NCBI RefSeq assembly: GCF_040802235.1 | Contig: NC_133156.1 | Coordinates: forward strand, 110,576,173-110,640,172 | From: Manis javanica | Taxonomy: Eukaryota > Chordata > Mammalia > Pholidota > Manidae | Reading direction: 5' to 3' | Length of the DNA stretch: 64,000 nucleotides | In this document: in pieces, positions 16,931 to 48,748 of the stretch | Numbering within the stretch: position 1 is the stretch's first letter | Layout: each line of letters begins with the position of its first letter | Position numbers and translations under genes: made by a program | The notes under the pieces: generated by a model | The model's input: the letters and a program-made list of their open reading frames with translations, nothing else | Told to the model about the DNA's origin: nothing | Database searches by the model: none

Positions 16931-18955
16931 ACACTTAAACCAAAAATTTTCCTTTAAATCTCCTTGTTTTTGACAAGCAACAGTGATGGCCTCTTTCCTC
17001 CAAACCTGTGTAGTAATGCAATTGCCTCATGAGTTGATACATACTCTCTTATCCGAAGAGAGGATCATTCTTTTTATTGAGAACAAAGGCAGGCTACATG
17101 AATAATATCATATCTTATTCAAGACTGCAGTCTGTTACTTGGCATATGGTGGGGTAGGATGAATGAATGCATTCTCTGTATTCTTTTTAAAATGATGTAT
17201 TGGGGTGATTAATGCTATTGTTACCAATTATCAGTTAAAACTGCAGCTTAATGTTAGGGGGTAGCTTATTTTCTGTTCATACAAACATAAGTTAGCCTTT
17301 TTCCTTTGCCCAAGGTGGACACTAACATCCTAGATTAACACCTAGTTGGAAAAAATGTGCTCCATACGGAGTTTGGAAGCTTCAGGTTTTGGTTTTTTTT
17401 TTTTAAGGATTTTTTCCCCCAAAAGGCAGCATGATTCTTTTAATACATCAAATAAGGTTTTCCTTGGTGCCCATCATAGTGAATGTGCATATGGTGTGGA
17501 ATAGGGTGAATAATACGGAGTAGCCTTTGGAACTTTAACTTGAAGAAATTCTTCTTCCTGCTTTGAGCCCAATTACTCATTCCAACAGGTAGTATGAACC
17601 ATGTTTCACCTAATGACCTTCCATTCAGGATTCTTTTTCTCCAACGTTAGCTTTTAAAGGAAAGGCAGAAGCCAACTACTGCTCCTGGGAAGTCATCTTC
17701 CCATGCTTAGAAACTCACAGGCCTCTCAAGAGTCTGACTTGGCAGTAGTCCAGACTCAGTTATCATGAAGACCATGGACGAAAGGTATCTCTTTGCTAAC
17801 TCAAGCCCTCCATCTTATTTTCAATATGCTCATTCATGGAGAGAAGGCAGAAAAAAACCCCCGAACAGTGAGTTGTCTATTTTTGCTAGTGAATTTGAGA
17901 GGCCTTCAACTTCTGCAGTTAATTTCAACCAATTGTGCTGTAGGGTTATGGAAGTTCATCACCTCCAGAATCCAGGTCAGAATCTACGTGTGCTTGCCTT
18001 AACAGAATGTCAAAAACAGTGAAAACTGGATATAATGGCTTAATGTTGTTGAGTCTAGTTAGCTCCTACATAGGCAAAAAAAGTCATTGAAATTACTTCA
18101 CAAGTATATTTACACACAACCTTGTCCGTAAATTGGATTAACAAAGCCAAGCTCTGTACTGTATGTTGTCTTTTATTTTAGTTCCTTCAAAAAAAACCCT
18201 CTAGCCATGGGAACTGTCATTTTTTCAGCTAAGGAAACAGGTTTAGAATGAAGATAGGACACCTCAAATCCTGTGGTTCACCAATCTGGAGTTCCTAAGG
18301 GTCTGCATTCCCTTCTGAGTTGTCTGCATATTGAAGGTGAATTCCTCTGTTATCTAGTAGAACGGTTTTGGCAGCCCCAGGTAAATTTATTGTATGGAAG
18401 ATCAGTCCTGAGGATACAAGAAAAGGAGTCAAGTTAGGGGGAAAATAAAAATATGACCCCTAAGACATTTATACAATCAGTTGCTTCAGAAAGACTTCAG
18501 TTGAAATTTCACCCTTGAATTTATGGAAGTCCTAATAATTAAACCAGGGCAGTCCCCTCATTCTCAAACTGGGGAGCGGGGGAAGTGGCACTCAAGTCAC
18601 AGGAGCCTAAATGGTGTCTCAGGCATTGTGTGGTTCAGAGCCTGAAATCTTCAAAACAACAAAACTCCCCAAACTGAATGTCCTTATCCAGTTTATCTCA
18701 TTCAGGCGATAGGGAAACCCCAGTATCAGTTTCCGAGTAGTCTTTACAAGGAAATGCACAAATCTCAAGGGCATTTACTTACACTTACCTCTTGCAATGA
18801 CACTGGGTCACAAGCTGCTTCTGCAGCTCATTTTCTTCAGGTGTGGTGGATTTGCGCACAGTGTGCTTGGACCCAAAACATGCAAAGCGCTGAACAGTTG
18901 CTGCTTCCCAAGAGTGTTTGGGGTCTACAACAGACTATACCGAATGCTTGAACTT
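16931..18955. other. ARL15-proximal upstream flank, no gene seen
   Basis: There are no supported exons. Open frames at 17765-18022 and 18754-18951 have no recognisable domain. This stretch might hold enhancers or a divergent non-coding transcript, but the sequence alone shows neither. Confidence 0.35.
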
Positions 18956-19717
18956 TTTCTTTTCCTTTGACGTGATGGAGAGCAAATTCTCCGGGGACAA
19001 TCTAGCGTTCCTAAGAAGGCGCCTCCTGGGTTCCTCTAGCCATGTCCGGGGTTCCGTACCCCAGCGGACACTAAGCTGGATTGTCCAGCTCCGCAGCTTC
19101 ACCCACTGGAGGAGGGGAGGCACCGCCCCCGAGTCACAGGCCGGCCAGCTCAGAGAGCTCGCTTACACGCTTCCAGCGTCCCCACGGTGCCGCCCCGAGG
19201 CCGCAGAGCCTTCACGAAATCTCTCCGGAGAGAAGCAGTGAGTGGCGGCGGCTACCACGCCTCGCATTTCACTGTTAGCATCCTACTGAGAGGTGGGAGG
19301 GAACACCAAAGCTCTGTCACTAGAGTGTAGTTCTGCTTTCCTTTACCCAACTGGGAGGGCGCAGAAGCTAACAGAGCTCGCGCGGCGGCAGCACCGGTCG
19401 ATTTTCCGCCGAGTCCGGCTCGCTCTTCCGCCTGCCCCGCCCCCGGCCCGCCCCTCCGCCAGGCCCACAGGAACCCGCCGCCGCGCCTCTCCCGCGCTTC
19501 TCTCCGTCCGTCCGCGGGGGCCTACCTTTTATAGGCGCCGCCGCCAATGAGCGCCCTCCTTTCCTTCTGCCCGCCCGCCGGGCCAATCGCCGCGCCCCTT
19601 GTGTAATCTTCGGCTCCTCGGCTGCTCTCGGCTATTTTCGTTGTTGCTGGATATTTCAGGGGCTGCTCGCTTGCAGCCAGAGACGCTGCTTTTTTTCCGG
19701 GTTCGGAGCTGTTCCGG

Positions 19718-19726
19718 ATGCTTTAG
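19718..19726 (+). promoter_or_regulatory. ARL15: Minimal upstream ORF (Met-Leu-stop) in ARL15 leader
   Basis: The leader contains ATG CTT TAG, ending 8 nt before the main ATG at 19735 and out of frame with it. Such minimal uORFs can lower initiation at the main start or make it depend on leaky scanning and reinitiation. Its use depends on the true transcription start lying upstream of 19718, which I infer but cannot see. Confidence 0.55.
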
Positions 19727-19734
19727 GCTGCCGG

Positions 19735-19782
19735 ATGTCTGATCTCCGGATAACTGAGGCGTTTCTGTACATGGATTATCTG
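19735..19782 (+). CDS. ARL15: ARL15 first coding exon (partial gene)
   Basis: The 16 codons translate to MSDLRITEAFLYMDYL, which I recognise as the N-terminus of ARL15, an ARF-like small GTPase of about 200 residues. The family member acts at Golgi and endosomal membranes and has been linked to magnesium-transporter (CNNM) regulation and adipokine traits. The exon ends in phase 0 after codon 16 at CTG|GTAGGT, a good splice donor. The GTP-binding P-loop and switch regions lie in later exons, outside the window. Unlike classical ARFs there is no glycine at position 2 for myristoylation. The start context is weak (C at -3, T at +4); the next in-frame ATG is codon 13. Overlapping minus-strand and other-frame open frames in the CpG island are compositional shadows. 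Confidence 0.9.
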
Positions 19783-20115
19783 GTAGGTGCAGGGCAGGGG
19801 TGGCGTGTCGCCTGTCGGACACCGGCGTGCCCGGTGTGCCTCCGCCTGGAGGTTCAGCTTTGCTTTCTTTCTTTGGGATGGGATGCCTTTGGGGCTCTTT
19901 CCCCCGCAGCGCGCTCTAGAGCTGTGCCGGGACTCGGAGGGGCGGGCGGCGGGGCCGCAGCGCTCGCGGCTGGTAAAACTGACAGGTAAAGGTGCGGCCC
20001 GTGCCAGCCTCGCTGCGGGGCGAGGGGCTCGCTGGGCTGCCGGAGAAACGGGGCCGCTCGGCGGGGCGTCCCCTGCCCACCGCCGGGTGCTTTGCTTCCC
20101 TCTGAGCTCCCCGCA

Positions 20116-23100
20116 AAGGACTTTTCTTTCCGGGGAAGCCAGAGTTTCCCGTTTTCTCTTTAGCAGAACTCCAGGTACTATTAAAGAGCTATAACCAGAA
20201 TGGCTCGCTAAGTGCCCGGCAGCCCTGGTCATTTGGTTGTTATTAGATCTCTAAAGCTCTGACCTCGGTCGCGGTGAGGGTTTAAAAGCACATTACCATA
20301 AACTAGTCAGGACTACACTACACTGCAGTCTGACCAGAACTGGACTGGGTAGGGGCCGGCATTGCCCTGCCGTGCCTGTCACGGGTGCACACTGCTTTTG
20401 CCCTGTGCACGGACTGGATCCCAGCTATGCTTTTAGGCCAGGCTTGAAGTTCAGATGGGAAAAGTGTCAGCATAATGCTGTGACTGAACGTTATCTTAAA
20501 AATAGACTTGAGTGTTTTTTGTGAAATTATGCAAGTATCGTGTATTGTTCCAGGAATTGTGTATTTCCCCAGAGATGCACGTTGGTGTTCACGGGGGTTC
20601 TCACTAATAATCAGCTGCGTTCGACCTTACACAATGACAAGGTTTACCTTGTTAGCCGGAACCGCTATTGCAGTGCAGAGTTGAAGTATGTGGTTAAAAG
20701 CATTGACCCTCCTGTCATCGTGTTGGACACATGCAGTTGATTCGACTGTAATTGGCCTGGCAAAGATTTGCCTGTGCCTTCTAGGAATTACACTTAATGC
20801 TGTACTAAGATTGTCAATCCTTTCATGATCAAGAAACTCTGGACAAACAGTGGTTTTGTAATGTTATATTGTATTTGAGCTTATTCTAGTTTATGTGAAG
20901 TAAATGTTCTCCCTAAAGTTTCATTTTTTGATGATCTTGTGGGGAAGGGTGGTGATTAGAGTTAATGCATGACCTTGTGAATGGAGCAGAGTAAAATAAG
21001 AGTTCAGATTCTGTTCATTTGTTTATGTCAGTAACTTCCTCTGTCTTGGTGATAAAGAGACATTATGTTATCCACACTGGAGCCAGCTAAGGGGGTTATC
21101 TGATTATAAGCATTCTTTAAAATGCAATTGTCATGTGGATGAAGAGAGTTGTCAAATGCTTCTTAAATATTTCCTAAATTAAATAACTGATTATTTTGTA
21201 GTTGTTCTTATATAATACAGGACTGTAGTTTTGTCTTGCAGTCTGCCCAAGTAAAAGCCAAAGTTTGTTGAGGATAATTGCTTAATAAAAAAGGGTGACA
21301 TTACCTATACTATTGAAAGGCAATTTTCTATACTTAAATAGTTTTTATAAAGAAAGTTAAGTGGTTCTGATTATTTTATTATTTATTTACTTCATGAGTT
21401 TTAAGTGTGCAAACTGCATCACAAAGCTGTTTTTCAGGTCCTAAACCCAACAAAAAGCATTTAGTGAAAGCAAAATTAAACTCTGGTTAATTATTTAGGT
21501 TAATTTCTAGATGAAGAGTCTCAGGATGGCTGAATGAATGTGGGTGAAGTTCTAGGTTACTTTTAAGAGCAGATTAATATGTTAATTTACCAACAGTTGT
21601 GTCAAAATTAATGAGCTCCAAATTTGACAGGATTTTTTTTTTACCTGCCACAACCCTCCCCCATACACACATCCTTGCATTAGTATACAAATATTTTGAA
21701 CTTTACGCTTTTTTTTTCAAACTCACAATTGTCATAAAAATCATTAGCTAATTAGTAGAGATGAGAAAAAAAATCTTGAAGTAGGGTACTCTTTATGGTA
21801 TCGGCCACTATCTCCTGTGAAAAGATTTAAGCAAATACTAAAGTCCATTTTTTTTACTGAAACTGGGCTGGAAAAAGAACAGACCTTCCTGAGGTGGTCT
21901 GTCCTGTTTACTTTTTGTTTATCAGCTCAGAAGGTGATGTGCCTCGCATCCTATCTTTCCTCTTTCATTATTGCCTTGCAGATTGACTAGTTTGCTTATA
22001 TGTAATCTTTATATACTGTTTATTAAAAACCAATTTCTGAAAAATGAAATATTTGGCGACTGTGTCTGGGATCTTATTTTTAAAATAAATCAATTCCTGA
22101 GTTCGTTCTCTTAGCTTCTGGAGAAAAAATTTTCCTTTCATTCCGAGTCTGACTCTTCAGATTTTGCTGAGCTTGTGCACTTCACAGGAACCATGGTGTG
22201 TGCCTTTTCTTTTTTTAATCGGTGTTTGACTTTCTTGCTGTTGCTGTTGGAAGCTGGAAGAGGGAGCTGTGTGTATTGTCCATTGTTCTTGGGACTGGAT
22301 GTCATCACTTAACCTTTTTTATTTGGAGGAGAGTGAAAAGGAAGAGAAATGAGAGAAAGGTGAGGTGCTATTTTTAACAGCTTTTAATAGCATTGTTGAT
22401 ATTAAAACAGATGATGAAGCTCTGACTTTAGAGGCTGCTGCCTATTTCTGAGCTGAAAAGAAATGCTGTATCAATTAGGTGCCAGGTAAGGCAATGGATA
22501 GGGACAGTGCCTTAATACTTAAGACAGGGTTTTCATTGATTTCAGGTTAGGGAAATAGGGTAAGTTACTAATGCTAAATAATGTGTACCACCCAGTGCCC
22601 GATATTTGTTGAATTGAATGAATATGAGACAAAAGGGACAGTCCGATTTACCTGCCAGTTCTAGACTGAGACAAGATAAAATCTGTTTGGATTAGGTGTT
22701 TTGTTCTGGGGAATGCAGAAATGTATCCTTTTCTCTTAACTTTAAGATTATCAAGATATAATTTATTTTACCCTGGTCGCAGTTTAAATAGGAAAATCTC
22801 AGTTTTCCAGTTGAAAAGGGAATTGGCTTTGGAGGCCACACACCTTTTTCCCATTTTTGTAGGGGCTTCAAGGGTCCTGTTCACACCTGTGAAATGTGAC
22901 TAAAGATTTTGCTTCTGTTCCAACAGGCTGTACCGGCATCTTTCTATTTCTGCTGACAGGTACAACTACTAAGACCATGGGCAGAACTTTTTGAATAAGA
23001 TAGGAGAAAATAGTAAAGTTACAATGAAAGAGAAAAAAATGTCTACCAGGTTTTCCTGGGAGATTGGACAAGATCAACTTCTAGATTCATTTCAGTTACA

Positions 23101-24599
23101 CTTTTTTTCTGTCCTGACTCATGTTGATTGGTATGAATTTCACTGTTTTCTCCTTCTGCCATCAAAACAGCAGCAGTAAAATTTATTATGTTTGTGTAAT
23201 GCCCATGATGATTAAATGAGTCAGTGGAGGGAAATTGATTTATAAACAGCACATGCTTTTCAGATGTAGAATGTTAATGTATTGTGATTATGTTGATGAT
23301 GTTTGTTATTCTGTTACCTCCTGTGGAAGGTATCAGACTGCTACTGCTCAATGGTAAATAGTGGACTACCTTTTAAACTAGTCTCAGTATCTGGAAAGAT
23401 TTGGAGTGGTGATCAGCAAGCAGGAAGTCACAAAACTCTTGAGGATTGTTTTATGCCTACAAAAATAAAACCACATTCTGATATTATCATTAATCCATTC
23501 AACAAACATTTATGGAACCCCTGCTTTGTACATGGCCCTGAGAGTCAAAGGGGATGAGCCCCCAGCTGGGATCCCCTTGGCTGCAGGATTGGCCGGCGTG
23601 TGGCTCTAGCGGAGCCTGTGGCAGGACAGGATGGATAAGGCACAGAGAGGAGAGGCAACTTCTCAAGTGTTCCTTGGTTTTCTAGTAGGTTTCTCTCTTA
23701 TTTTATATGTGTTTGTTTCTTTTACTATGAACTAAAATGCTTTAGACCTGAAAATGTGAAAAATAAAACTGCTTGATTAGGCTTGGGTGCTAATTGTTAG
23801 TGATCATTGCACTTGTATATTGCATTTGGAATTTAGTAAGGCCAGGGTTCTAGATTTCTCCCGTGAATGGATTGGTGAACCTGGCTTAGTTTCTTGGTCA
23901 CAGGCTGTAGTTGTAGCTGCCATTATGTGTCAGTGTAGAGGATCAGTTGAGAGACAGCAGATGGATCAGCATAAATACATCATTATTTTGCAGGTCATAA
24001 ACCAACTAACCAACTAGCCATGAAAAGAAACTCATGGTATGCTACAATGGACAGCGCCTGTAGGTACTATTGAATGGGCTCATTTAGAATGTCAGAGAGT
24101 GAAGGCACATTTGTGATTTATGCCACCATGTTCAGTTATCCTGTAAGTGTGCTGTTTTTAACCCTGAATGGCTATGAACATTGAAAATTTTATGCTCTGA
24201 CTATGATCAAACTGGTTATAAAGTAACAGTATAGGCCAAACATTTTTTAGTCTAAACTGCAACTGCATTAATCCCATAAATATTTCTTTATTGATAAATC
24301 ATAAGATAAAAATAATGCAAACATAATAAACAGATCTATCACCTATGGAGTTCTCATAGCAAAAAAGTTTTGAGAGTATCCATACTATTAGGCGGGAATT
24401 TTGGTATAAAGGAGTTAGCTTGGTTCTCCAGCTTCCACGGCTCGAGTCTTGCACTGTGTGTCCTGGGAGAGGACACACAGGGGACATGATTCATGCGCTC
24501 TGGGAGCTTACTGCATTCTGAAGGATGCCTAAGCCATGTACTTACTAGCATGCTGGGGCATGAGAAGAGTTAAGCATAGGAGTTGTGAGGGTAAACTTA
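20116..24599. other. Intron 1, unique-looking 5' part
   Basis: I see no repeat larger than short A/T tracts and no exon. The first few kilobases of such introns often carry regulatory elements, and the lack of recent insertions here contrasts with 30-60 kb. Open frames are short and featureless. Confidence 0.4.
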
Positions 24600-24750
24600 G
24601 TTAATATTTATTGAGTACTTACTGTGTGCGATACAACATTGTAAGTGCTTTCCAGGCATAATGGCCTTAAACCGAGGCTTGAAGAGATTAACTTCCCCAA
24701 GCTCAGATAGCTAGCAAGTAGTAGAGTTGGGGTCCTGGCTGGAAAGCCCT
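24600..24750 (-). repeat. MIR SINE
   Basis: The blocks tatttattgagtacttactg, gtaagtgctttccaggcataatggcc and agctcagatagctagcaagtagtagag fit MIR in minus orientation. Confidence 0.7.
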
Positions 24751-25420
24751 CCCTCTTCACTGCCTTCTTTCTAACTTGATGTTAAAGCTGTTGGAACACA
24801 TTGAAGTTTTTACAATGTGTATTTCATGTAAATACTGTGTATTAATACTGTTGATTAAGCCAAGGGTAAGGAAACCAGGGGCTTGAGCAGGCTGACTGAT
24901 GTTCCTGTGTCCCCAAGGACTTGGTGCTGCTAACTGACTGTTAAGGAGAAGACTGGATAGAGAAACTGTGTTGTCCTGAGTCTCCTGCCCCACAGTGTCC
25001 TGACTCTATCCCAGAGGTGACCTTCGGCATCTAATATTTCATCAAGTGATCACAAATGGGTTTCCAGGCAATTCTGTTCCTCAGTCCCCTAGTGTCCCTT
25101 CAGGGGCCCTTTCTGATATGCCATAAGCCCCATTTTCTTTTGAAAAGGTCACTGAGACTCAGGATCTGTTTTATTTGAGGTCTGCTATATGCTCCTTTAC
25201 CAAGTCCCACCTGGTAAGTGAGGCTGTCCCCAGCAGACACTGGCCCCAAGTAGCCTTTGCTTATGGATTTCAGTGAGGCAAAGTCTCCTAATGGCATTAA
25301 CTACACAGGGTTTGTTTCTTTGTAGAAAGAAGGAAAGGTTTTTAGGGAAGGTCTAGTAATGGCATTGTAGGTAACAAGAACGCAGTGGTTTCTGCTGATA
25401 CTTTTCAGAAACTGAATTAA

Positions 25421-25618
25421 TGATGGGCTTTTATTTCATCTTTAAAAAATTTATTTATTTATTTAATTTTTTTATTAAGGTATCATTGCTATACACTCTT
25501 ATGAAGGTTCCACAAGAAAAATAATGTGGTTACTACATTCACCCATATTATCGAGTCCCCCCGTACCCCACTGCAGTCACTGCCTATCAGTGTAGTAAGA
25601 TGTGATGAGCTTTTATTT
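25421..25618 (-). repeat. Short 5'-truncated L1 3' end with near-perfect target duplication
   Basis: The body (25437-25602) carries a T-rich tail and then ggtatcattgctatacactcttatgaaggttc, matching in antisense the 3' terminus of the L1 at 30.6-34.5 kb. It is flanked by a 16-bp direct repeat, TGATGGGCTTTTATTT (25421-25436) and TGATGAGCTTTTATTT (25603-25618), with one mismatch. It is therefore a discrete retrotransposition event in which only about 130 bp of 3' UTR was copied. Confidence 0.8.
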
Positions 25619-26039
25619 TGTAGCCTGAACGTCCCTTTAGTTAGGTTGTAGCTCCCCTTGGCATCTCCCCAGATGATCTTGTGTTTGGATGAGTCTAAAG
25701 CCAATTCTTGTCGACACTCATTTCTGAGTGTCTGCAAAGTGGTTGAGCACATTTACTTCCAGTAGGACTGGCTTCCCAGGCATGTGGCCAAGGCTGCCTG
25801 TCTCAGAAGTACCCCACACTTGGTTTAATGCTTTTCAGTCACCATCTTGAACTTCTTCATTTTTGGTGCTTTCCAAACGTCTTCATTTTGCACCCACAAT
25901 TTTGTAGCCACCACAAATTATGTAGCCAGTTCTGATCTCTATTGCTAAATACATAGGGATAGCCCCTGAATAGCCATCATCTGAGTCTGTAACCTGCATC
26001 AGTGAAGGTGCTCTGAGCCTGACCACTGTTTTCTCTAGA

Positions 26040-26270
26040 TTCGGGTCTGGTGCTTGCTAAGTAGGGGACTGTGTACCACGTACAGTGTGAAGTGTTTTAC
26101 TTGTATCACTTAATTTCTCCTTCCAACAGTCCCCTTAACCAGATACTACTACTTACAAAAGACTGACTGATTTAGAAGGGAGTGAGCCTAAGGTTTAGGG
26201 AGCTGGAATATCATATTGGCCAGGATCACAGAACCAGTGCAGTGTCAGGGCGAGGGTATGAACCTCACTG
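26040..26270 (-). repeat. MIR SINE
   Basis: Decayed MIR in minus orientation: gtgaagtgttttacttgtatcacttaattt, ccaacagtccccttaaccag, then ggatcacagaaccagtgcagtgtcagggcgagggtatgaacc. Confidence 0.6.
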
Positions 26271-26899
26271 GGCAGATTCTAGGCCCAGGCTTGTAAGCGT
26301 TATTCAGTACTGCCAGCGTACTTGTAGTTAATAGTTGTTGAGAGGATGGGTGAGAGGGGCCACATGAATCAGACCCAATGCTAGAAATTGAGGGGTAACT
26401 TGATTGCTGCTGCCACCTGGGAGAAGGACTCCCAGGACCTCCAAGACAGCTCAGCTCCTGCTGGGGAAACGGGGGTTTGTACTGTAGGGTGAGGGTTTGC
26501 TCACTCATTTTGCTTTAATTTATTTGTCTACCCACTCTCTCCTTTACTCTTTTTGCATAACAAATGTTGGTGTTCTTTTTTTTAGCTCATAGTCAAACAT
26601 ACCTACTTGATTTTGAGGGTAACTATTTGAAAACTTGGATTTGCAGGACAATCTAATTTCTCTGGTTCTTTTATACCTACATTTTTTGGGGAAGTTATGA
26701 CCTCTGGATTGCTTCCCTCAGTGTTGAGGACTTATTGAGTAATTGTGTCCATGTCTCCCCAAGAGGGATTCCTGTGGGTTCTTTTTTCAGCAGGATAGCT
26801 GCTTCTCTGGCTTCTCTCCCTTGGGGAAGCAGATGACAGTGAGGAGTCATCCCAGGACCATTGATTGAAGCACAGAAGGATTGCACCTGTCCCTAATGA

Positions 26900-27310
26900 G
26901 TCTCCACATGGACTCAGGAGCTCAGGTGAAATACTATTCTAAGTTTTATATATAGTAAATACAAGTATTCAGGAAAGTACAGAAAATAATAAAATACTTC
27001 TATGTACCTACCTCACTGATTGAACAGTTGTTGACATTTTGCTATTTTAACTTAAACTCTGGTGCTCTTTTAAAAAAAAGTTTAAGGCTACCGCTAAAGT
27101 CTAAAGCCTGCTCTTCCCCCATGCCTTCTTCCTCCAGCTGCCTCAGTGGGACAACTGTCCTGCAGTTAGTGGGCATCATTTTCGTGTATGTTTTTGCAGT
27201 TTTATTATCTTTGCATGCATGCATAAACCATGCAGTATTATTTTTGTGTGTAACAATTTTACAAAACTTGTAACATACCACCCTTATCTTTTGAAATTTG
27301 TTTTGTCTAA
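26900..27310. repeat. Possible ancient interspersed repeat, unclassified
   Basis: The run gaaaataataaaatacttctatgtacctacc...gttgacattttgctatttta...aaccatgcagtattatttttgtgtgt has the pattern of a widespread old mammalian repeat. I cannot assign the family. The open frames crossing it show no host-protein signature. Confidence 0.35.
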
Positions 27311-28264
27311 TGTTTAGATGATTAAATGTTGCCATATATCAGGTATTTGTTGTGTATTTCTGAATTAGATACTGCCATTTCTGGTTTTATATGTAGAGAT
27401 CTCTGGATTTTGTGAGAAGCACACAGAAGAGAGTAAGTGTTGGTTTTCAGGCATAGTTTCATGTGAATGCCTGTGTACTTTTATATTACAAAATGAATTA
27501 TATAAACTACTTAATGAAATTTGATTGCATTTTACTCTTATGATTCATCAGTTTCTTATACAGTTTAGATCAATCATTTTATGATCATATTAACACACAT
27601 ACATATATATCCATATGTATTCTTACCTGTGTAGGGACTGAGATTATTTAGGTCACATGTTTATTATTAAGGTAAAGTCTTAGTGAGGAAATTTGGAAGG
27701 CTCAACAAAGCACAGTGAAGAAAAAAATACATAGTCCAACAACCCACAAAGAACCAGTTAACATTTTCCAACCCTGCATCATAATGAAGATGTAGTTTTA
27801 TATATAACCTGTTTTTTACACTTACAAATGTTTAGATTCTAACAATCTCTCTTGTGTAACATTTTCCGCATATACCAATAAACCTTAATTTTCTTTACTA
27901 ATCATCTTTTCATTGACTATTTTATGTTCCCATTCTGACTGTTATAAATGTTACCATGGACATTCCATATAAGCTCTTGGGTATTTCATGATATTGTATA
28001 TAAGGAACAGTAGTTCTGTGGTACTTTAATGAATCTTATTACAAAAAGGGGTTCCAGTGCCAAGTAAATTTGGGAACTGGGTCAAACAGTTAAATTTCTA
28101 TATTGTACAGTCTTTAGTATGCAAATGTATGTGGCATATCTCTAAAAGGGAGATTATTACATGTAGTGTTCCTAATCCTTTAGAGTATTTTTGCCCAGTG
28201 GTCAAGTTCTAGAAGTAGAATTGAGGGTCAAAGTTACCCACATTTTAAAGTACTTGATATTGAT

Positions 28265-28520
28265 TAAGTAAGTTAATATTTGTAATGCACTTAGAACAGT
28301 GCCTGGATATAATCAACCAATGTTTGTTAAGTTAAAGTTATGTAATAGTGAAGTTGGTGGTAATGATGATGATTAATATTTATAGAGAATTTATTGTCCT
28401 AGATTCTTCAAGAAGTGCTTAATATGCATTCACCATTTGGTTAGTTCTTTCAACAATCCTCTGAGAGGTGTAGGGGCTATTATTTCCTGTTTTATGGTTG
28501 AGGGAACTGAGAGTCAGGAG
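28265..28520 (-). repeat. MIR SINE relic
   Basis: The sequence ttaatatttatagagaattt...agaagtgcttaatatgcattc...caacaatcctctgagaggtgtaggggctattatttcctgttttatgg is MIR in minus orientation. A short separate MIR-like tail (gcacttagaacagtgcctgg) precedes it at about 28288. Confidence 0.65.
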
Positions 28521-29634
28521 GAATTGAGTAATCATAACTACCTCAGTTGTTATGAAGGTTGGTGAGAGGTCCATAATCTTAATCGGTATATATTTTTATT
28601 ATTGCGATAGAGAAGAACGAACTTTGTCTGAAGTCCTGTATTTGATTACCAGATATTGTACCTGTTACCTGTGAGATATAAGGTGTTTTCCAAATATCAG
28701 CCCATAGCCAAATGGAAAAATCAGAGTGTTGCAAAGTAATTGTAAATTTAATTTACAAATTTAAAATTTAAGATTATCTTTCCAACTTCTTGTAGATTAT
28801 TAGTATATACTCTCCATTCTGAAATGTTCGTGAATGATAGTAACTCACGCTTCTGCTGATTATTTGACAGAATAAAAAGATGACAATCCAGTACCAGTCC
28901 TCAAGTTTGTATGTACATATGAATGTATGTATATATTTAAAACGTACTGATTTTTGAAACCCGAATACTGGGAACCTGATCTGAGGCAAGTCACTCTGAA
29001 CCAAAGTTCTCTCATTTGCAAAATTCACATAGCAATGGAGCCTCTGATAAGCACTCTTCTAAACAAAATAAACTGTATAGTGTTTTTTTTTTAAATCACA
29101 TTTCTATGCTGATTGGTATGAGAGTACAAATGACTCAATATAATGGCATCAATAGAAGGGGGTGCAGGTATAGATAAAGTGACTCTATGTGCTTGATTTT
29201 TTTTTTTCCTTTTCCACTTTTTTTAGGGACACCTTGGGGATTTTTTCTCTCCAAAAGTGGCACTATACAATTTTAAGTAATTTAACTAAACCTTATGTAG
29301 GAATGCTTTTTTCTTGTACATATTAAGAGTTGGACATCAAGAAGTTGTCCTTGACCTGGGACCTGTTCTGCAACTTACTCATATTGGGACTTTTAGTCCT
29401 CAAAATAATGTTAAAGTGAATTTTTACTATCACTGAATATTTATTCTCTCCTTTCTTCCTGCTCTGATTGAGATATTTTTTAAGATAGTCAGTTGTGACT
29501 AGTAAATTAGATGTGAGTTAAACAAACAAACAAAAAAAACAAGGCTTCTTTTGAAAGTTGAATGAGATAATGTATATACTATACTACATGAACATAAGGT
29601 AGTATATGAACTCATATGTGCCTATCATTTTTTT

Positions 29635-30450
29635 CTAATTAAATTAAAAAATTTAATTGGAATATAGTTGATAAACAATATTGTTTTCGATGTGCAACAT
29701 AGTGGCTCAATAATTATGTATATTACTAAATGCTTGCCACAGTAAGTGTAGTTACCCCCATTACCATACCAAGATATTAAAATCTTATTGGTTATATTCT
29801 TTCTAATTAAAGTTTTTATTCACCCAAATGAATTGTTTTTCAAAAAAATTGATCTATAACTTACATAAAGTGCGCAAGTCTTAAAGGTTCTGCTAGATGA
29901 ATTTAGATGTACATGTATCTTGTAACCACCCTCAGATGAAGGTGTAAAACATTTCTAATACTCCAGAAGGCTCTCTAGTGTCACTTCTGATTTTGCCTGA
30001 TTAATTTAAACTTCATATAAATGTAATCACCAGTATTATTTTGTGTGTGATTTTTCTTTCCCTCAGTATGCCTGTGTAATTCGTGTATGGTGCATGAATC
30101 AGTAGTTCTTTTTTGTTGTCATGTAATATTGTATGAATACGCCATCACTAATCTATCCATTTTGTTATTGGTGAACACTGAGATTGCTTCCAGTTTGAGG
30201 ATAAGGAATAAGGCTGCTACAGACATTCTTGTAAATGTTTTTGGTGGAAATAAAACATTAATTTCTGCTGGGTGGAGTGAAATTTCAGGTTGATTGGGCA
30301 TATGTATGTTCAGGTTTATTTAATACCACTGAACATTTTTTTCAAAGTGGCTGTACTAATTAGACTCCCACTAAGAGTGTAAAAGGGTTCTTGCCAATAC
30401 TTTTTGTGTTGTTAGTCCTTTTCATTTATCCATTCTGACAGGTGTGTACT
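29635..30450 (-). repeat. Old antisense L1 3' end(s)
   Basis: The segment attggaatatagttgataaacaatattg...caacatagtggctcaataat (29650-29790) is an L1 3' UTR on the minus strand. From about 29815 to 30450 further L1M-like sequence includes atctatccattttgttattggtgaacac and ggctgctacagacattcttg. Both are decayed and non-coding. Confidence 0.7.
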
Positions 30451-30613
30451 CCAGAGAAATTTAAAGTTGCCCAGAGCTACTTCCATATGTCTAGGCATGA
30501 GAACAATATAATCAAAGGGGATTAGAAGGCAATTTTTTTTTAATTTGTAGAAATCACTTGGCCATATTCTGAAATTCCTACATTATTTGTGATTCATTTG
30601 AAAATTCTGACAT

Positions 30614-33600
30614 ACCAGTCCAACAAGAAGATATAATCATTATAAATATCTATGCTCCCAACACAGGAGCACCCACATATGTGAAACAAATTCTAACAGA
30701 ATTAAAAGGGGAAATAGAATGCACTGAATTCATTCTAGGAGACTTCAACACTCCACTAACTCTGAAGGACAGATCAACCAGACAGAAAATAAGTGTTGAG
30801 GCATTGAACAACACATTAGAACAGATGGACCTAAGAGACATCTATAGAACTCTACACCCGAAAGCAGCAGAATACACATTCTTCTCAAGTGCACATGGAA
30901 CATTTTCAAGAATAGATCACATACTAGGCCACAAAAAGAGCCTCAGTAAATTAAAAAATATTGAAATTGTACCAGCCAGTTTCTCAGATCACAAAGCTAT
31001 GAAACTAGAAATAAATTATGCAAAGAAAATGAAAAATCCCACAAACACATGAAGGCTTCACAACATGCTCCTAAATAACCAATGGATCAATGACCAAATA
31101 AAAACAGAGATCAAGCAGTATATGGAGACAAATGACAACAATAATTCAACACTGCAAAATCTGTGGGACGCAGCCAAGCCTGTGCTAAGAGGAAGGTATT
31201 TTGCAATACAGGCCTACCTCAAGAAAGAACAATCCCATATAAGCAGTCTAAACCCCCAATTAATGAAACTAGAAAAAGAACAACAAATGAGGCACAAAAT
31301 CAGTAGAAGGAGGGGCATAATAAAGATTAGAGCAGAAATAAATAAAATTGAGAAGAATAAAACAATAGAATCAATGAAAGCAAGAGCTGGTTCTTTGAGA
31401 AAATAAACAAAATAGATAAACCCCTAGCCAGACTGATCAAGAAAAAAAGAGAGTCTACACAGATAAACAAAATCAGAAATGAGAAAGGGAAAATCACTAC
31501 AGACACCACAGAAAGACAAAGAATTATTAGAGAATACTATGAAGAATTATATGCTAAAAAACTGGATAACCTAGAAGAAATGGACAATTTTCTACAAAAA
31601 TACAACCTTCCAAGGCTGACCAAGGAAGAAACAGAAAATCTGAACAGACCAATTACCCGCAATGAAATTGAACTGGTAATCAAAAACCTACCTAAGAACA
31701 AAACTCCTGGACCAGACAGCTTCACTGCTGAATTTTATCAAACATTTAGTGAAGACCTAATACCCATTCTCCTTATAGTTTTCCAAAAAATAGAAGAGGA
31801 GGGAATACTTCCAAACTCATTCTATGAGGCCAGCATCACCCTAATACCCAAACCAGGCAAAGACACCACAAAAAAAGAAAATTACAGACCAATATCCCTG
31901 ATGAACATAGATGCAAAAATACTCAACAAAATATTAGCAAACCAAATTCAAAAATACATCAAAAAGATCATCCATCATGATCAAGTTGGATTTATGCCAG
32001 GGATGCAAGGATGGTACAACATTAGAAAATCCATCAACATCATCCACCACATCAACAAAAAGAAGGACAAAAAACATATAATCATCTCCACAGATGCTGA
32101 AAAAGCATTTGACAAAATTCAATATCCATTCATGATAAAAACTCTCAACAAAATGGGTATAGAGGGCAAGTACCTCAACATAATAAAGGCCATATATGAC
32201 AAACCCACAGCCAACATTATACTTAACAGTGAGAAGCTGAAAGCTTTTCCTTTAAGATTGGGAACAAGACAAGGATGCCCAACATAGTACTGGAGGTCCT
32301 AGCCATGGCAATCAGACGACACAAAGAAATAAAAGGCATCCAGTTGGCAAGGAAGAAGTTAAACTGTCCCTGTTTGCAGATGACATGATATTGTACATAA
32401 AAAAACCCTAAAGAATCCACTCCAAAACTATTAGATCTAATATCTGAGTTCAGCAAAGTTGCAGGATACAAAATTAATACCCAGAATCTGCGGCATTCCT
32501 ATACACTAACAATGAACTAGCAGAGAAGGAAATCAGAAAAACAATTTCATTCACAGTTGCATCAAAAAGAATAAAATATCTAGGAATAAACCTAACCAAG
32601 GAAGTGAAAGACCTATACTCTGAAAACTACAAGACACTCATGAGAGAAATTAAAGAAGACACCAATAAATGGAAACAAATCCCATGATCATGGATAGAAA
32701 GAATTAATATTGCCAAAATGGCCATCCTGCCTAAGGCAATCTATAGATTCAATGCAATTCCTATCAAAATACCAACAGCATTCTTCAATGAACTAGAGAA
32801 AATCATCCTAAAATTCATATGGAACCACAAAAGACCTCAAATAGCAAAAGCAATCCTAACAAGGAAGAATAAAGCAGGGGGAATTACGCTCCCCAACTTC
32901 AAGCTCTACTACAAAGCCACAGTAATCAAGACAATTCAGTACTGGCACAAGAAGAGACCCATAGACCAATGGAACAGACTAGAGAGCCCTGATATAAACC
33001 CAACCATATATGGTCAATTAATATATGATAAAGGAGCCATGGACATACAATGGGGAAATGACAGCCTCGTCAACAGATGGTGTTGGCAAAACTGGACAGC
33101 TACATGCAAGAGAATGAAACTGGATTATTGTTTAACCCCATACACAAAAGTAAACTCAAAATGGATTAAAGACTTGACGGTAAGTCATGAAACCATAAAA
33201 CTCTTAGAAGACAACATAGGCAAAGATCTCCTGAATATAAGCATGAGCAACTTCTTCCTGTACCCGTCTCCTCGAGAAAGGGAAACAATAGCAAAAATGA
33301 ACTCATGGGACTACATCAAACTAAAAAGTTTTTGTATGGCAAAGGACATCATCAACAAAACAAAAAGGCGTTCTACAGTATGGGAGAATATATTTGTAAA
33401 TGACATATCCAACAAGGGGTTAACATCCAAAATATATAAAGAACTCACACACCTCAACACCCAAAAAGCAAATAACCGATTAACAAATGGGCAGAGGATA
33501 TGAAGAGACAGTTCTCCAAAGAAGAAATTCAGATGGCCAACAGAGACATGAAAAGATGCTCCACATCACTAATCATCAGGGAAATGCAAATTAAAACCAC

Positions 33601-34095
33601 AATGAGATATCACCTCACACCAGTAAGGATGGCCAGCATCGAAAAGACTAAGAACAACAAATGCTGGCAAGGATGTGGAGAAAGGGGAACCCTCCTACTG
33701 CTGGTGGGAATGTAAGCTAGTTCAACCATTGTGGAAAGCAATATGGAGGTTCCTCAAAAAACTAAATAGAAATACCATTTGACCTCGGAATCCCACTTCT
33801 TGGAATATACCCAAAGAATACAACCTCTCAGATTCAAAAATACATATGCACCCCTATGTTCATTGCAGCACCTTTTACAATAGCCAAGATATGGAAGCAA
33901 CCTAAGTGTCCATCTGTAGATGAATGGATAAAGAAGATGAACATATATATAATGGAATACTATTCAGCCATAAGAAAGAAACAAATCCTATCATTTGCAA
34001 CAGCATGGATGGAGCTGGAGGACATTATGCTCAGTGAAATAAGCCAGGCAGAGAAAGACAAAAGCCAAATGATTTCCCTCATTTGTGGAGTATAA
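30614..34095 (+). pseudogene. L1 ORF2 remnant (endonuclease end, reverse transcriptase, C-terminal region)
   Basis: Successive open pieces (30681-31052, 31065-31406, 31580-32287, 32718-33503, 33500-33715, 33856-34095) follow the order of L1 ORF2p. They comprise the end of the apurinic-type endonuclease (GDFNTPL, FSRIDHILGH, SDHKAMKLE), the reverse transcriptase ([23 protein letters not shown]) and the C-terminal region. The FADD active-site codons survive at 32373-32384. Just before them, at 32280/32281, 19 bp present in the 54-60-kb copy are missing, which shifts the frame. Several more stops and frameshifts follow. No functional protein is possible. Confidence 0.92.
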
Positions 34096-34169
34096 CAATG
34101 AAGCAAAACTGAAGGAACAAAATGACAGCAGACTCAGAGACTCCAAGAATCAACCAGTGGTTACCAAAG

Positions 34170-34206
34170 GGGAGGGTGTGGGAGGGCGGGTGGGGAGGGA
34201 GGGAGA
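34170..34206 (+). repeat. G-rich tract in L1 3' UTR, G-quadruplex candidate
   Basis: In 37 bp there are eight runs of three or more guanines with short loops (ggggagggtgtgggaggg followed by cgggtggggagggaggg). L1 3' UTRs are known to carry polypurine, quadruplex-prone tracts. The 54-60-kb L1 has a less regular equivalent. Confidence 0.75.
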
Positions 34207-34499
34207 AGGTGATTGAGGGGTATTATGTTTAGTACACATGGTGTGGGGGATCACAGGGAGAACAGTGTATCACAGAGAAGGGACATGGTGGATCTCTGGC
34301 AACTTGCTATACTGATGGACAGTGACTGCATTGGGGTATGGGTGGGGACTTGATAATATGAGTAAATGTAGTAACCACATTGTTTTTTCATGTGAAACCT
34401 TCATAAGAGTGTATATCAATCATAACTTAATAAAAAATTAAAAAAATAATAATAATAAATAAATAAGTAAGAGAAACAAAAGAAAATTCTGACATGCTG

Positions 34500-34890
34500 A
34501 AGAGGTACTGTGGGAGTCAACAGACCTGGTTGTATTTCTGGCTTTTCCACCGACTAAGTATGGAGCTTTGGGCAAACTGGTCAGTGACTGACTTCAGTTT
34601 CTTCATCTATAAAAGGATGGGTGGAATTAGATAATCTCAAATTTTTCTTTTATTTAAAAATTTTTCTCATTTTATATCTTTTCTGGAATAGTTTCCTTTC
34701 TTTATAATTCTGTTACTTAAGTGAGCTTAAGTTGCCTTTGTATAAGTTACTTATCATTCATTCACTTAGTTCTAATTTTTTATAGAGCCTTTTAGGCTTT
34801 GGGGCTGTTCTAGGCACTAGGGATATACAAGTTAGTAAGACATCAGCCTGCTCTCAAGGAACTTAGACTCTTGTAGAGATGAAAAATAAT
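34500..34890 (+). repeat. MIR SINE and MIR/L2-like relic
   Basis: Positions 34508-34640 read as MIR in plus orientation (gtcaacagacctggttgtatttctgg, gcttcttcat-type block agtttcttcatctataaaagg). Positions 34760-34890 (ctgttctaggcactagggat...aaggaacttagactct) are a second old fragment of MIR or L2 type. Confidence 0.6.
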
Positions 34891-35474
34891 TACATTTTGA
34901 AGTAGTATATTCAACTTAGAAAGAAAGGTTACTGAGGGAGTATGTGGAAGGGAACCTTACTTATCCTAGACTCAGGGGCTAAGGAGGTCTTCAGAGGAAT
35001 CATTTTTAATCTGCAACCTTGAAGCTGAGTTGAGTTGGTCCTGTGATAGGCAGGGCCAGGGCTGGGCCGAAGGAACAGCTTGTACAGAGACTTGGAAATG
35101 AGTAACCCGTCAGTTCAAGGAACTCCATGGGCCCAGTGTGGCTCGAGCAGAATCAGGAGCGGTAGCTAGGCACAAAGCTGCAGGCCCAGCCAGGGTCACA
35201 TCGTGGGACCTTCAGTGTTTGCCTAGAGTGACCTGCACAAAACGGGCTGCAGTGTGGAGAAGGACTGGAGAGGAAGACCAGAATGGAGTAAGAAGATCAC
35301 TTAGGAAGATGCTGTCCAGATTCAGGAATGAAATGATGGTATGTAGGGACAGGCAGGATGTAGAAAAGTAGGTGGATTTAAGCAACATGAGAATGCCAGA
35401 ATTTTGTAAATGAATGTTGAAGATGAGAACATAGGAGATTTTAGGGATAATACTCAGGGTTTTGGTTTAAGCGT

Positions 35475-35970
35475 TGTTCTAGTTATCTATTACTGATTAA
35501 TAAACCACTTTAAGACAGTAGCTTAGCAATAATTTACTCATGAATCTGGAGATACATTGGGTTCACCGAGGCTGTTCTTGCTCAGGATCCCTTATGAAGT
35601 TACAAAGGGATGTGGCTGGGTTCATTTTCAAGGCTTCTTCCTACACTTACTTACCTGGCATCTGGGCTGGGAGCAGGCAAATAGCTGGGAGTGGGGGGAG
35701 GCTGGAAAAGTGTGGGCTCCTGGGCATCTCCTCATGTGGACTTTGCACATGATGCCTCAGGTAGCCACACCTCTCCCATCCAGGCTGAAGGGTCAGAGCA
35801 AGTGCACCATGGAAAACGGCAAGCTGCTAGTCTTTTCTAGACCCACCTCAACAATCATGCACCCGTGCTTGTACTACATTCTGTTCATCAAGACTGTCTT
35901 GGAGCCATGCTCAAGGTCAAGGGCAGGAGACAGACACTGCCTCTTGGTGGGAAGCTGAAGAATCTATGAG
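35475..35970 (-). repeat. Old interspersed repeat, probably LTR or DNA type
   Basis: The pattern gttctagttatctattactg...aaaccactttaagacagtagc at one end and tcaaggtcaagggcaggaga...tgcctcttggtgggaagctg at the other matches a widespread old mammalian repeat of about 450-500 bp. I cannot name the subfamily with confidence. The open frames inside show no host domain. Confidence 0.5.
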
Positions 35971-36189
35971 TGTGTTTTAGAACCACCACAGGCATTGGGG
36001 TTGCTGATGGGGTCATGTACTCTGTAGGTTACACTTGAAGGAATAGCATGTTAAGAGGGAAAATGAGTTTGCTTCTGATGTTACCAAGTTTGCACTGCTT
36101 GTGTGAGATCCAAGTTGAGATTTCATGTAGGTGGATGGGAACTCAGAGATGACTCTTGGAGATGTAGTTAAAAACAGTAGGTAACATTG

Positions 36190-36400
36190 TTACTTACCAT
36201 ATGCTGTATAGTGTATTATCATCAACATGTGGGATGTATAGTCCTAGGTATTTTGCATGCATTATTCATTACTAGTATCATTTTAGAAGTTAGACAACTG
36301 AGACTTAGAGAAAGTGAGTGTCATGTCTGTGATGTGATGGAGCCAGAATTTGAATCCAAGTCTGGCTAATGTCTGACCTTGCATTCTTAACCATGTAGAT
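36190..36400 (-). repeat. MIR SINE
   Basis: The sequence ttgcatgcattattcattac...gaagttagacaactgagacttagagaaagtgag...gagccagaatttgaatccaagtctgg...ttcttaaccatg is MIR in minus orientation. Confidence 0.75.
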
Positions 36401-37436
36401 GGTAACTGAAGCCATGGCCACGAATGCACGCGCCCAGGGAGGACTGTGCGGGATAAGAAGGGAAGAGCTCCCCAGAAGCCCAGTGGCCTGGTCAGTGCTG
36501 GCATGTAGGAGGCCTGCAGTTTCTGTGGGATCAATAAAGGAAAGGAACCTAAGAAAGAGCCTGCGAGGAAGAGAACTGAACGGTTGGAAGAGAACCTGGA
36601 GAATGTTGTGTCAAACAGGCTGAGATGGGAGACTTTCTGGAAGGAGGAAGTGGCTGGTTGTGTTAAATGTTGCCCAGAGATTACAGAAGAAAAGTGACCA
36701 CTGGAGTTACGTCAGTGGTGACCTTGGCCAGAGTGCTCTCGGGCCTTGTGGGAGGTGACAAAATCAGCTATAGTAAAGTCTGTCAAGAAACTTCACCCTG
36801 AAAGAAAAGGATTGAGCTGGAACTGTAGGTGGGGATGTTGAGGGGCAGCTTTCCTTTTTACTTGGGACTGACCTGAGGTGGTTAATATCGGTGAAGTAGA
36901 TTATGAGGTCATTTTGCTGAGTGTGACTGAAATGTGGTGTGGTAGGGGTTAGAGCTGCACGGGCCTGAAGAAGCCGCAGTGAAGAAGGAGGGCCAGGGAT
37001 GATGGGGACACAGAAGTGTTGGTTGCCGTGTGCTGTGGAGGTCAGACACCATGACTGCACAATGACACAAACCTGATAGCTGTGTGACTTGTAGGGTGAG
37101 GTCCCGTGAGGCTGGGCCAGGTTCAGAAATCCTCAGTGAGTGAGGGGAAGGTCAGCCGGCTTCACTGGAAGTATGTAGAGACCGGAACATACTAGAGCTT
37201 GTACCACTCTGAGCCTTGAAGGGAGCAGGGAAGGGGCAGAGTCTGGAAATCGTCCAAGGTGATTGTTACTTCTCAGTGCCTCAGTTTGTCCCTCTGTAAA
37301 GTGGGGATAGGAAAGAGTCACTACCTCCTGGGCTCGTAATAGGATGAACTGAAATAACGTACTGTGACTGTTCCTTCTGCTTCTTCTTGCTGGTCGTCAT
37401 GGCAAAAAGACCTTCACAGCATTTATACTGGCAGGC

Positions 37437-37800
37437 TTTTTTTTTTTAGGTGTAATTGACATATAACATTATATTCCAGGTGTACAGCACTGATTTGATA
37501 TTTGAATATGTAGTGAATTGATCACCACAATTCGGTCATCATACACAGTCACAAATTTTTTTTCTGTGGTGAGAACTTTTAGGATCTACTCTTTTAACAA
37601 CTTCCAAATATACAGTATTAACAACTATAGTCCCCATCTGTACATTACATCTCCAGGACTTATTCATTCTGTGACTGGAAGTTCATACATTTTAACCCTC
37701 TTCACCTGCCCCACCCCCACCAATCTGTTCTGTGTTTCTATGAGCTTTTTTTTTTTTTTTAAGATTCCACATGTGAGATCCTATGGTGTTTACCTTTCTC
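37437..37800 (-). repeat. Antisense L1 3' end
   Basis: A T-run at 37437-37447 is followed by aggtgtaattgacatataac, attccaggtgtacagcactg and aactatagtccccatctgtacattacatctccagg, the 3' UTR of an intermediate-age L1 on the minus strand. A second T-run at 37747-37760 begins another short piece. Confidence 0.75.
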
Positions 37801-37829
37801 TGCCTGACATATTTTTATGTCTTAGCATA

Positions 37830-38035
37830 GTGCCCACAAGGTTGACAGGCATTTCCTAAGGGCCCTATGAGGTAGATACTGGTATCATCTCCATCCGATG
37901 TTAACTGAGACTCAGGAAAGTTAATCAAGTTGTTTAAGGAAATATAGCTGCTCTTAAGGAACAGAGCTGGGATTTGAACCTGGGAAGTCAGGCTCCAAAT
38001 CGTCCCTGGTCCCTTAACCAGCATTGCATACTTAT
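37830..38035 (-). repeat. MIR SINE
   Basis: The sequence ggccctatgaggtagatactggtatcatctcc, gagactcaggaaagttaatcaagttg, gctgggatttgaacctgggaagtcaggctcc and cccttaaccag form a well-preserved MIR in minus orientation. Confidence 0.8.
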
Positions 38036-39149: not shown

Positions 39150-39335
39150 GGGCTGCACAGAGGAATGGTTAAGGGCACAGACCGTGGAGCCAGCCTGCAT
39201 TTGCATTCTAGCTCAGTCACTTACCGGCTGGGCAGCCTCTGTGCCTCAGTTTCCTCATATGCAAAATGGGCCTAACAGTGTCTACCTCACAGAGTTGAGT
39301 AAAATATAGAAAGTATTTAAAAGAGAGCCTAGTAC
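39150..39335 (+). repeat. MIR SINE
   Basis: The sequence gaatggttaagggcacagac, gtggagccagcctgcatttgc, ctcagtttcctcatatgcaaaatggg and ctcacagagttgagtaaaata form MIR in plus orientation, including the tRNA-derived head. Confidence 0.85.
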
Positions 39336-41225: not shown

Positions 41226-41259
41226 TTTGCTTGTGGGGAAAACCTCAGCTGGTGGGCAA

Positions 41260-45844: not shown

Positions 45845-45980
45845 AGAGCAGGCTTTAAAGTCCAAAAGATTTGGGTTCAAGTAAATATTGCTTCTGTCAC
45901 ATACTAGCTGCTATCTATCTGTTTCCCCATCTCTAAATTGGAAATAATACTACTACTATAAAGTAGAATACAGCATACTT
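45845..45980 (+). repeat. MIR SINE
   Basis: The sequence gattaagagcaggctttaaagtcc, gatttgggttcaagtaaatattgcttctgtcacatactagc and ccatctctaaattggaaataatac is MIR in plus orientation. Confidence 0.7.
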
Positions 45981-48700: not shown

Positions 48701-48748
48701 CACATGGTATAATGTAATTATTTTAGTCTGGTCACAGGCCCATAAGTC

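What the first reader, a model, noticed from the sequence alone, without database searches (positions are those of the whole stretch)
19735..19782. ARL15 first coding exon fixes the locus
A 48-nt exon encodes MSDLRITEAFLYMDYL, ends in phase 0 at GTAGGT and sits in a CpG-rich promoter. It is far too short for ORF-length methods, yet it is the only host coding sequence in 64 kb and orients the whole window: 19.7 kb of upstream flank and at least 44 kb of intron 1.
Basis: partly seen in the sequence, partly recalled or inferred. Interest (0 to 1): 0.75.

Follow-up and report, generated by a model that had tools for sequence, protein, structure and literature searches.

The report
ARL15 start: two leader exons
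This stretch of DNA, likely from a mammal, holds the known first coding exon of the gene ARL15 and, 44 kb further on, a piece conserved since sharks that is predicted to be a second ARL15 leader exon; the two would likely give the protein different tips beside its membrane anchor.

Summary
Window 19735-19782 encodes MSDLRITEAFLYMDYL, the N-terminus of mammalian ARL15. It lies in a CpG island and ends at a GT donor in phase 0. A published mouse Arl15 cDNA primer matches 19749-19770 at 22 of 22 bases, and a primer spanning the junction leaves the genomic sequence at 19782/19783. In the window's own genome, ARL15 exons 2 and 4 lie downstream on the same strand. Exon 2 starts at the Cys17 codon, 167,393 bp away.

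Two parts of the interpretation fail. Exon 1 is not the only ARL15 coding sequence here: 63498-63554 matches a second leader exon, 1b (RMSECIQLSFAVCRIGMYT), phase 0 at both ends, with AG and GT borders, conserved from sharks to mammals. Nor is everything downstream necessarily intron 1: if 1b is used, the first intron is 43,715 bp and ends inside the window. A third such exon (1c) lies beyond the window.

Best reading: interchangeable leader exons join the same exon 2 just before the acylated Cys17/22/23 and would change the tip beside the membrane anchor. Splicing in this species and any effect on targeting are untested. Isoform records already exist in databases; my paper searches found no description of exon 1b.

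The parts
19735..19782 (+). ARL15 exon 1, coding part (16 codons, MSDLRITEAFLYMDYL), from the ATG to the donor
19783..19788 (+). 5' splice site GTAGGT, phase 0
   Evidence: cDNA primer departs here; 7 of 9 consensus positions
18701..20500 (.). CpG island; likely promoter region (transcription start not mapped)
   Evidence: CpG observed/expected 0.61-1.00 in 500-bp windows
19544..19587 (+). Two CCAAT motifs (19544 and 19583)
19718..19726 (+). Upstream mini-ORF ATG CTT TAG
   Evidence: function untested
63498..63554 (+). ARL15 leader exon 1b (19 codons, RMSECIQLSFAVCRIGMYT), phase 0/0; predicted
   Evidence: tblastn E=7e-14, best reversed control 0.001; borders; conservation
63484..63497 (+). 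3' splice site of 1b, TTTTAATCTTGTAG
   Evidence: pyrimidines at 14 of 20 positions from -23 to -4
63555..63560 (+). 5' splice site of 1b, GTAAGC
   Evidence: 7 of 9 consensus positions
19783..63497 (+). First intron (43,715 bp) in transcripts that use 1b; part of a 167,393-bp intron in those that do not

Best explanation
The window holds exon 1 of the small-GTPase gene ARL15 at 19735-19782, inside a CpG island that is the likely promoter, and a 57-nt stretch conserved from sharks to mammals at 63498-63554 that is predicted to be a second leader exon, 1b; each would splice to the same exon 2 and so give the protein a different N-terminal tip. Shown by the sequence: exon 1 ends and exon 2 begins in phase 0, between Leu16 and Cys17; 1b, and a third exon 1c outside the window, are phase 0 at both borders, so every combination keeps the frame. 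Shown in published work: Cys17, Cys22 and Cys23, encoded at the start of exon 2, are S-acylated and hold ARL15 on membranes. Inferred: the leader exon sets the residues directly before the acylated cysteines; 1b adds one invariant and one usual further cysteine and a hydrophobic stretch, so leader choice would tune acylation or membrane choice without touching the GTPase domain.
For: Exon 1. cDNA junction: with primers from PMC8689486 (passages). Exons in cis in the own genome: 1c at C1:110742067-110742162, exon 2 at 110763348-110763492, exon 4 at 110820542-110820750, each with AG and GT borders; exon 4 is 209 bp, the length given for human exon 4 in PMC5730586 (passages). Exon 1b. 106 of 218 fetched proteins match the 1b peptide at 9 or more of 18 identities, a share inflated because two of three searches were seeded with 1b. 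Among 43 distinct peptides Cys12 and Arg13 are invariant and Cys4 is in 27. Of the 106: 60 start at 1b and join exon 2; 19 have an exon-1 end in front and exon 2 behind; 15 have another 5' part and exon 2 behind; 12 have something other than exon 2 directly behind. Frog rows have Val at position 1 (5 of 43 distinct peptides), so there it is no ATG start but an internal exon. Acylation: PMC13196370 (passages) and PMC8689486 (passages).
Against: No RNA was available from this species. Most records that carry 1b are predicted isoforms by their names. No primate or rodent row among the 218 fetched carries 1b; the listed human alternative isoform uses another first exon (P0006). The leaders are not marked amphipathic helices: 1877 of 2000 shuffles reach exon 1's hydrophobic moment, 656 of 2000 that of the window's 1b, 803 of 2000 that of shark 1b. 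The exon-1 form alone already reaches the Golgi. The role of Cys17 itself is disputed: C17Y still reached the Golgi in PMC8689486, while C17S was mostly cytosolic in PMC13196370. Exon 3 was not found in the fetched 200 kb, of which 1329 bases, counted over all fetched loci, read N; exon 5 was not found there either.
Confidence: 0.72

Rival explanations
1. Exon 1 is the only leader exon in use here; 1b is a relic of a vertebrate exon that mammals no longer splice in to any useful extent.
For: No primate or rodent row among the 218 fetched proteins carries 1b. The acylation studies I read passages of number the cysteines 17, 22 and 23, i.e. used the exon-1 form. The window's copy has Met16, not seen in the 43 distinct fetched peptides.
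Against: The open frame, both splice borders and both-ends phase 0 are intact here. 16 of 18 residues equal the usual mammalian peptide. Record names with 1b include bats, whales, buffalo, dog, tree shrew and four marsupials.
Confidence: 0.2
2. 1b is not a cassette but an alternative first exon with its own promoter, giving MSECIQLSFAVCRIGMYT-CFRALCC.
For: 60 of 106 matching proteins start at the 1b Met and join exon 2. An in-frame TAG stands directly before the AGA codon in the genomic DNA.
Against: No CpG-island-like window lies near 63.5 kb. An AG acceptor with a pyrimidine-rich tract stands before it. In 24 of 106 proteins an exon-1 end precedes it (19 joined on to exon 2, 5 to something else), and frogs lack the Met. 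Both uses may coexist.
Confidence: 0.25
3. The 19735-19782 match is a processed or partial ARL15 copy rather than the gene.
For: Only a short exon matches in the window, and exon 3 was not found in the fetched 200 kb.
Against: The match ends at a donor exactly at the cDNA junction, lies in a CpG island, and exons 2 and 4 follow in order on the same strand with splice borders. The 161-bp exon 1 region matches once in the own genome.
Confidence: 0.01

Closest known systems
[quoted passage not shown]
   Same: Residues 1-16 identical; junction at 16|17; exons 2 and 4 with the expected protein and borders in the same genome
   Different: None in exon 1.
ARL15 isoform records carrying MSECIQ[I/L]SFAVCRIGIYT (e.g. 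P0011 Hipposideros, P0148 Bubalus, P0015 Chlamydotis with Leu16)
   Same: Same 18-residue peptide, same join to CFRALCC
   Different: The window's copy has Leu7, as in the bird rows, where the listed placental and marsupial rows mostly have Ile7, and it has Met16; usage here untested
Human ARL15 mutually exclusive exon cluster (PMC5740500) and mouse islet Arl15 cassette exon (PMC8395343)
   Same: Alternative ARL15 exons reported from human and mouse RNA-seq
   Different: The text I read does not say which exons these are, so identity with 1b or 1c is open
ARF-family N-terminal helix with myristoylated Gly2
   Same: A short N-terminal segment ahead of the GTPase domain that serves membrane attachment
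   Different: ARL15 has Ser2 and uses S-acylated cysteines. A Gly2 appears only in shark and ray forms of 1b (16 of 106 rows start MG); the chimaera has MAEW

Membership tests
ARL15 gene | N-terminus MSDLRITEAFLYMDYL in mammals | tested here: met
ARL15 gene | Exon 1/2 junction after Leu16, phase 0, exon 2 starting at Cys17 | tested here: met
   cDNA primers; CAG|TGT in the own genome
ARL15 gene | GTPase exons downstream in cis, same strand | tested here: met
   exons 2 and 4 on contig C1
ARL15 gene | All remaining coding exons (3 and 5) present | tested here: inconclusive
   neither found in the fetched 200 kb, part of which reads N; no further stretch was fetched
ARL15 gene | Spliced transcript from 19782 | not testable with these tools
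   no reads of this species available
Conserved alternative coding exon (1b) | Peptide conserved across vertebrates | tested here: met
   43 distinct peptides, Cys12 and Arg13 invariant
Conserved alternative coding exon (1b) | AG and GT borders; frame kept on inclusion and on skipping | tested here: met
Conserved alternative coding exon (1b) | Inclusion in mRNA in this species | not testable with these tools
   no reads available
Mutually exclusive exon cluster | Exactly one member in each transcript | tested here: inconclusive
   24 of 106 matching protein records carry an exon-1 end and 1b together, which speaks against it, but these are mostly predictions; RNA not tested
ARF-type amphipathic leader helix | Hydrophobic moment above that of shuffled sequence | tested here: not met
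   1877, 656 and 803 of 2000 shuffles reach it for exon 1, window 1b and shark 1b

The most novel reading that the evidence does not exclude
ARL15 carries a vertebrate-wide switch of leader exons (1, 1b and, in mammals, 1c), all in symmetric phase 0, that swaps the peptide beside the triple S-acylation site and thereby moves the GTPase between membranes; the Arl15 cassette exon that differs between diabetes-prone and diabetes-resistant mouse islets is one of these leaders.
Probability: 0.2. Interest if true: 0.65.

Novelty: already known. Interest (0 to 1): 0.36.

Why it matters
Exon 1 itself is ordinary annotation: it fixes locus, strand and frame. The wider point is that the two ARL15 acylation studies I read passages of used the exon-1 form (they number the cysteines 17, 22 and 23), while the gene keeps a second leader exon conserved from sharks to mammals that joins at the residue next to the acylation site. 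If used, it offers a direct test of how ARL15, a locus tied to type 2 diabetes traits and magnesium handling, is sent to different membranes. For genome reading it shows that a second tiny exon of the same gene can hide 44 kb away.

Tried and rejected
PDB search with the exon 1 translation plus four intron codons: no hit at E<=10; the solved ARL15 chain starts at residue 32, so it could not help. Rfam and tRNA scans of the window: nothing.

Other host genes: all 65 listed stop-to-stop ORFs of 100 aa or more went to Pfam; only retroelement domains were found. ORFs running off the ends were not listed, and shorter exons of other genes are not excluded.

Human isoform X2 first exon (P0006): 19808-19915 matches part of it at 68%. 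Its later part matches at 22122-22154 only at E=0.009, weaker than the best reversed control (0.001). Not claimed as an exon here. The Pteropus X1 insert matches 22228-22359 at 70% with gaps, E=2e-20: conserved sequence, not claimed as an exon.

ARL15 exons 2-5 inside the window: best hit for residues 17-204 has E=1.1, i.e. none.

Amphipathic-helix switch: not supported. Myristoylation as the ancestral state: dropped, because Gly2 is only in shark and ray rows and the chimaera lacks it.

Literature. Searches (exon 1 peptide; exon 1 DNA; 1b and exon 2 peptides): no paper. One search (ARL15 isoform, transcript, exon, splice, promoter phrases): 2 papers. Search 69: 126 papers, 10 listed. Searches (28,480 papers, 20 listed; 4,093, 8 listed) were swamped and are weak evidence. 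Passages on isoforms or exons in PMC5730586, PMC2781107, PMC11855589, PMC8257531 and PMC9352346: nothing on leader exons. No text seen describes exon 1b; only part of each listing and passages of each paper were seen.

Full report
OBSERVATION. Window 19735-19782 translates to MSDLRITEAFLYMDYL and is followed by GTAGGT. The block occurs once in the six frames of the window. Mammalian ARL15 records begin with it: 17 of 218 fetched proteins carry it at 12 or more of 16 identities, and all 17 are named as therian mammals (names). The low share reflects how clusters are represented and listed: the best 120 of 574, 120 of 295 and 44 of 44 were listed, and many representatives are predicted isoforms with other leaders.

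INDEPENDENT cDNA EVIDENCE. PMC8689486 (passages) prints mutagenesis primers on mouse Arl15 cDNA. One matches window 19749-19770 at 22 of 22 bases; the next best placement in the window is 17 of 22, on the minus strand. Another reads, reverse-complemented, GGATTATCTG|TGTTTTCGAGC: it follows the window to 19782 and then leaves it. This is the exon 1/exon 2 junction, between Leu16 and Cys17, phase 0.

PROMOTER SETTING. 500-bp windows starting from 18701 to 20001 have CpG observed/expected 0.61-1.00 and GC 0.54-0.68; the rest of the window averages about 0.15. CCAAT motifs lie at 19544 and 19583; an ATG CTT TAG mini-ORF at 19718-19726 precedes the main ATG, and a 19-codon ORF starts at 19547. The guinea pig record P0032 reads through a 5' region that matches the translation of 19582-19782 at 89.6% over 67 residues, the 16 of exon 1 included. 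The transcription start is not mapped; calling the island the promoter is inference.

THE GENE IN CIS. The window's own genome is held: G000, 2.56 Gb in 63 contigs, window at C1:110576173-110640172; the 161-bp exon 1 region matches once. I fetched the next 200 kb and searched it with ARL15. Exon 2 is at C1:110763348-110763492, preceded by a pyrimidine tract and CAG and followed by GTGGGT. Exon 4 is at 110820542-110820750, 209 bp, the length given for human exon 4 in PMC5730586 (passages). Exon 1 to exon 2 is 167,393 bp. No exon 2-5 sequence lies in the window (residues 17-204, best E=1.1).

I ran the N-terminal leaders of 91 of the 120 then-listed ARL15 proteins, plus the core, against the window, with the 92 reversed sequences as control. 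Besides exon 1, the strongest leader match is at 63498-63554: RMSECIQLSFAVCRIGMYT, best E=7e-14; the best reversed query reached 0.001. (The Pteropus insert at 22.2 kb and the human X2 piece at 19.8 kb also match; see Tried and rejected.) The DNA reads ...TTTTAATCTTGTAG|AGA ATG TCT GAA TGT ... TAC ACG|GTAAGC: a 57-nt stretch, phase 0 on both sides, in the orientation of exon 1, 43,715 bp downstream. I call it exon 1b. Its donor, like that of exon 1, scores 7 of 9 consensus positions, which 163 of 3626 GT sites reach, so the splice sites alone would not single it out; the conserved peptide does.

CONSERVATION OF 1b. Two further searches, seeded with bird and shark 1b proteins, brought the set to 218 proteins. 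Of these, 106 carry the peptide at 9 or more of 18 identities, a share inflated by the seeding. 60 start at 1b and join exon 2; 19 have an exon-1 end (MDYL, MDYM) in front and exon 2 behind; 15 have another 5' part and exon 2 behind; 12 have something else directly behind (7 starting at 1b, 5 after an exon-1 end). Among 43 distinct peptides Cys12 and Arg13 never vary, Ala10 holds in 42, Ile14 in 40, Cys4 in 27. Frog rows have Val at position 1, so there it is no ATG start and is internal. By record names the 1b set spans sharks, rays, chimaera, bony fishes, amphibians, reptiles, birds, marsupials and placentals (bats, whales, buffalo, dog, tree shrew). No primate or rodent row among the 218 carries it, which counts against use in all mammals, though cluster members were not seen.

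A THIRD LEADER. At C1:110742067-110742162, outside the window, lies a 96-nt phase-0/0 exon encoding VAGKYVQLRTINHLDYMLHLSCVSGQKSSMTT (31 of 32 residues as in pangolin isoform P0002; 77% over 26 residues to the unnamed, rodent-like P0013), with TTTTAG and GTGAGT borders. Exons 1, 1b and 1c can be combined in front of exon 2 without breaking the frame.

EVOLUTION OF EXON 1. In this sample the 16-residue form is seen only in therian mammals. 42 of 218 proteins begin MD[Y/F/H][L/M], at the equivalent of Met13; two are vesper bats, one is unnamed, and 39 are non-mammals by name. The first 12 codons may therefore be a therian extension of an older four-codon leader. This is inference from protein records only.

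MECHANISM. Cys17, Cys22 and Cys23 are S-acylated and needed for membrane location (PMC13196370, passages; PMC8689486, passages). The papers differ on Cys17: C17Y still reached the Golgi, C17S was mostly cytosolic. Residue 2 is Ser, so ARF-type myristoylation is not expected. All three cysteines are in exon 2, and each of the three leaders ends directly before Cys17. The inferred mechanism is that leader choice changes the residues next to the acylated cysteines (1b adds Cys4 and Cys12 and a hydrophobic run) and so would change acylation or membrane choice while leaving the GTPase domain alone. A simple amphipathic-helix version is not supported: 1877, 656 and 803 of 2000 shuffles reach the moment of exon 1, window 1b and shark 1b.

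LINKS TO PUBLISHED RNA DATA. PMC8395343 (passages and the figures-and-tables section) lists an Arl15 cassette exon with inclusion 0.613 in islets of NZO mice against 0.103 in B6-ob/ob. PMC5740500 (section 7) names a mutually exclusive exon cluster in human ARL15 as one of a handful not explained by splicing restrictions, NMD or folding. Neither text says which exon. Symmetric leader exons would fit, but this is a lead, not a test. The protein records do not speak for strict mutual exclusion: 24 of 106 carry an exon-1 end and 1b together.

NOVELTY AND VERDICT. Exon 1 is known annotation. 1b-bearing isoforms are already in public protein records, mostly as predictions; the paper searches showed no description of them, two of these searches being swamped. 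The finding is confirmed as an observation, its claim of uniqueness is not upheld, and the added second exon is a modest, testable point.

Noticed in passing
46877-52856 (-): Direct repeats 46877-47180 and 52553-52856 (90% identical) flank minus-strand pieces with reverse transcriptase and RNase H domains: an LTR retroelement, broken into several frames, between exons 1 and 1b.
   Followed up: partly
30616-34352 (+) and 54024-58976 (-): Two L1-like copies in opposite orientation, 85% identical over 3.8 kb, with endonuclease and reverse transcriptase domains in separate pieces of both and ORF1 domains in the minus copy.
   Followed up: partly
922-1303 and 5056-5424: Inverted pair, 83% identical, related in part to the repeats at 46.9 and 52.6 kb: perhaps solitary LTR-like copies upstream of ARL15.
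   Followed up: no
22122-22359: Intronic patch matching an insert of Pteropus isoform X1 (E=2e-20, gapped) and, at noise level, part of human isoform X2: perhaps a conserved regulatory stretch.
   Followed up: partly
19718-19726 and 19547-19606: Two upstream ORFs before the ARL15 ATG (2 and 19 codons); possible translational control, untested.
   Followed up: no
L012 1895-1990: Exon 1c, another ARL15 leader exon (96 nt, phase 0/0), 102 kb beyond exon 1b.
   Followed up: yes
19735-19770: The first 12 codons of exon 1 occur only in therian records of this sample; most other vertebrate exon-1 forms start at the Met13 equivalent: a possible N-terminal extension in therians.
   Followed up: partly
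window 1-64000: Self-comparison of the window gives only 11 repeat pairs at E<=1e-8, few for a mammal; not classified further, but it may help to place the species.
   Followed up: no
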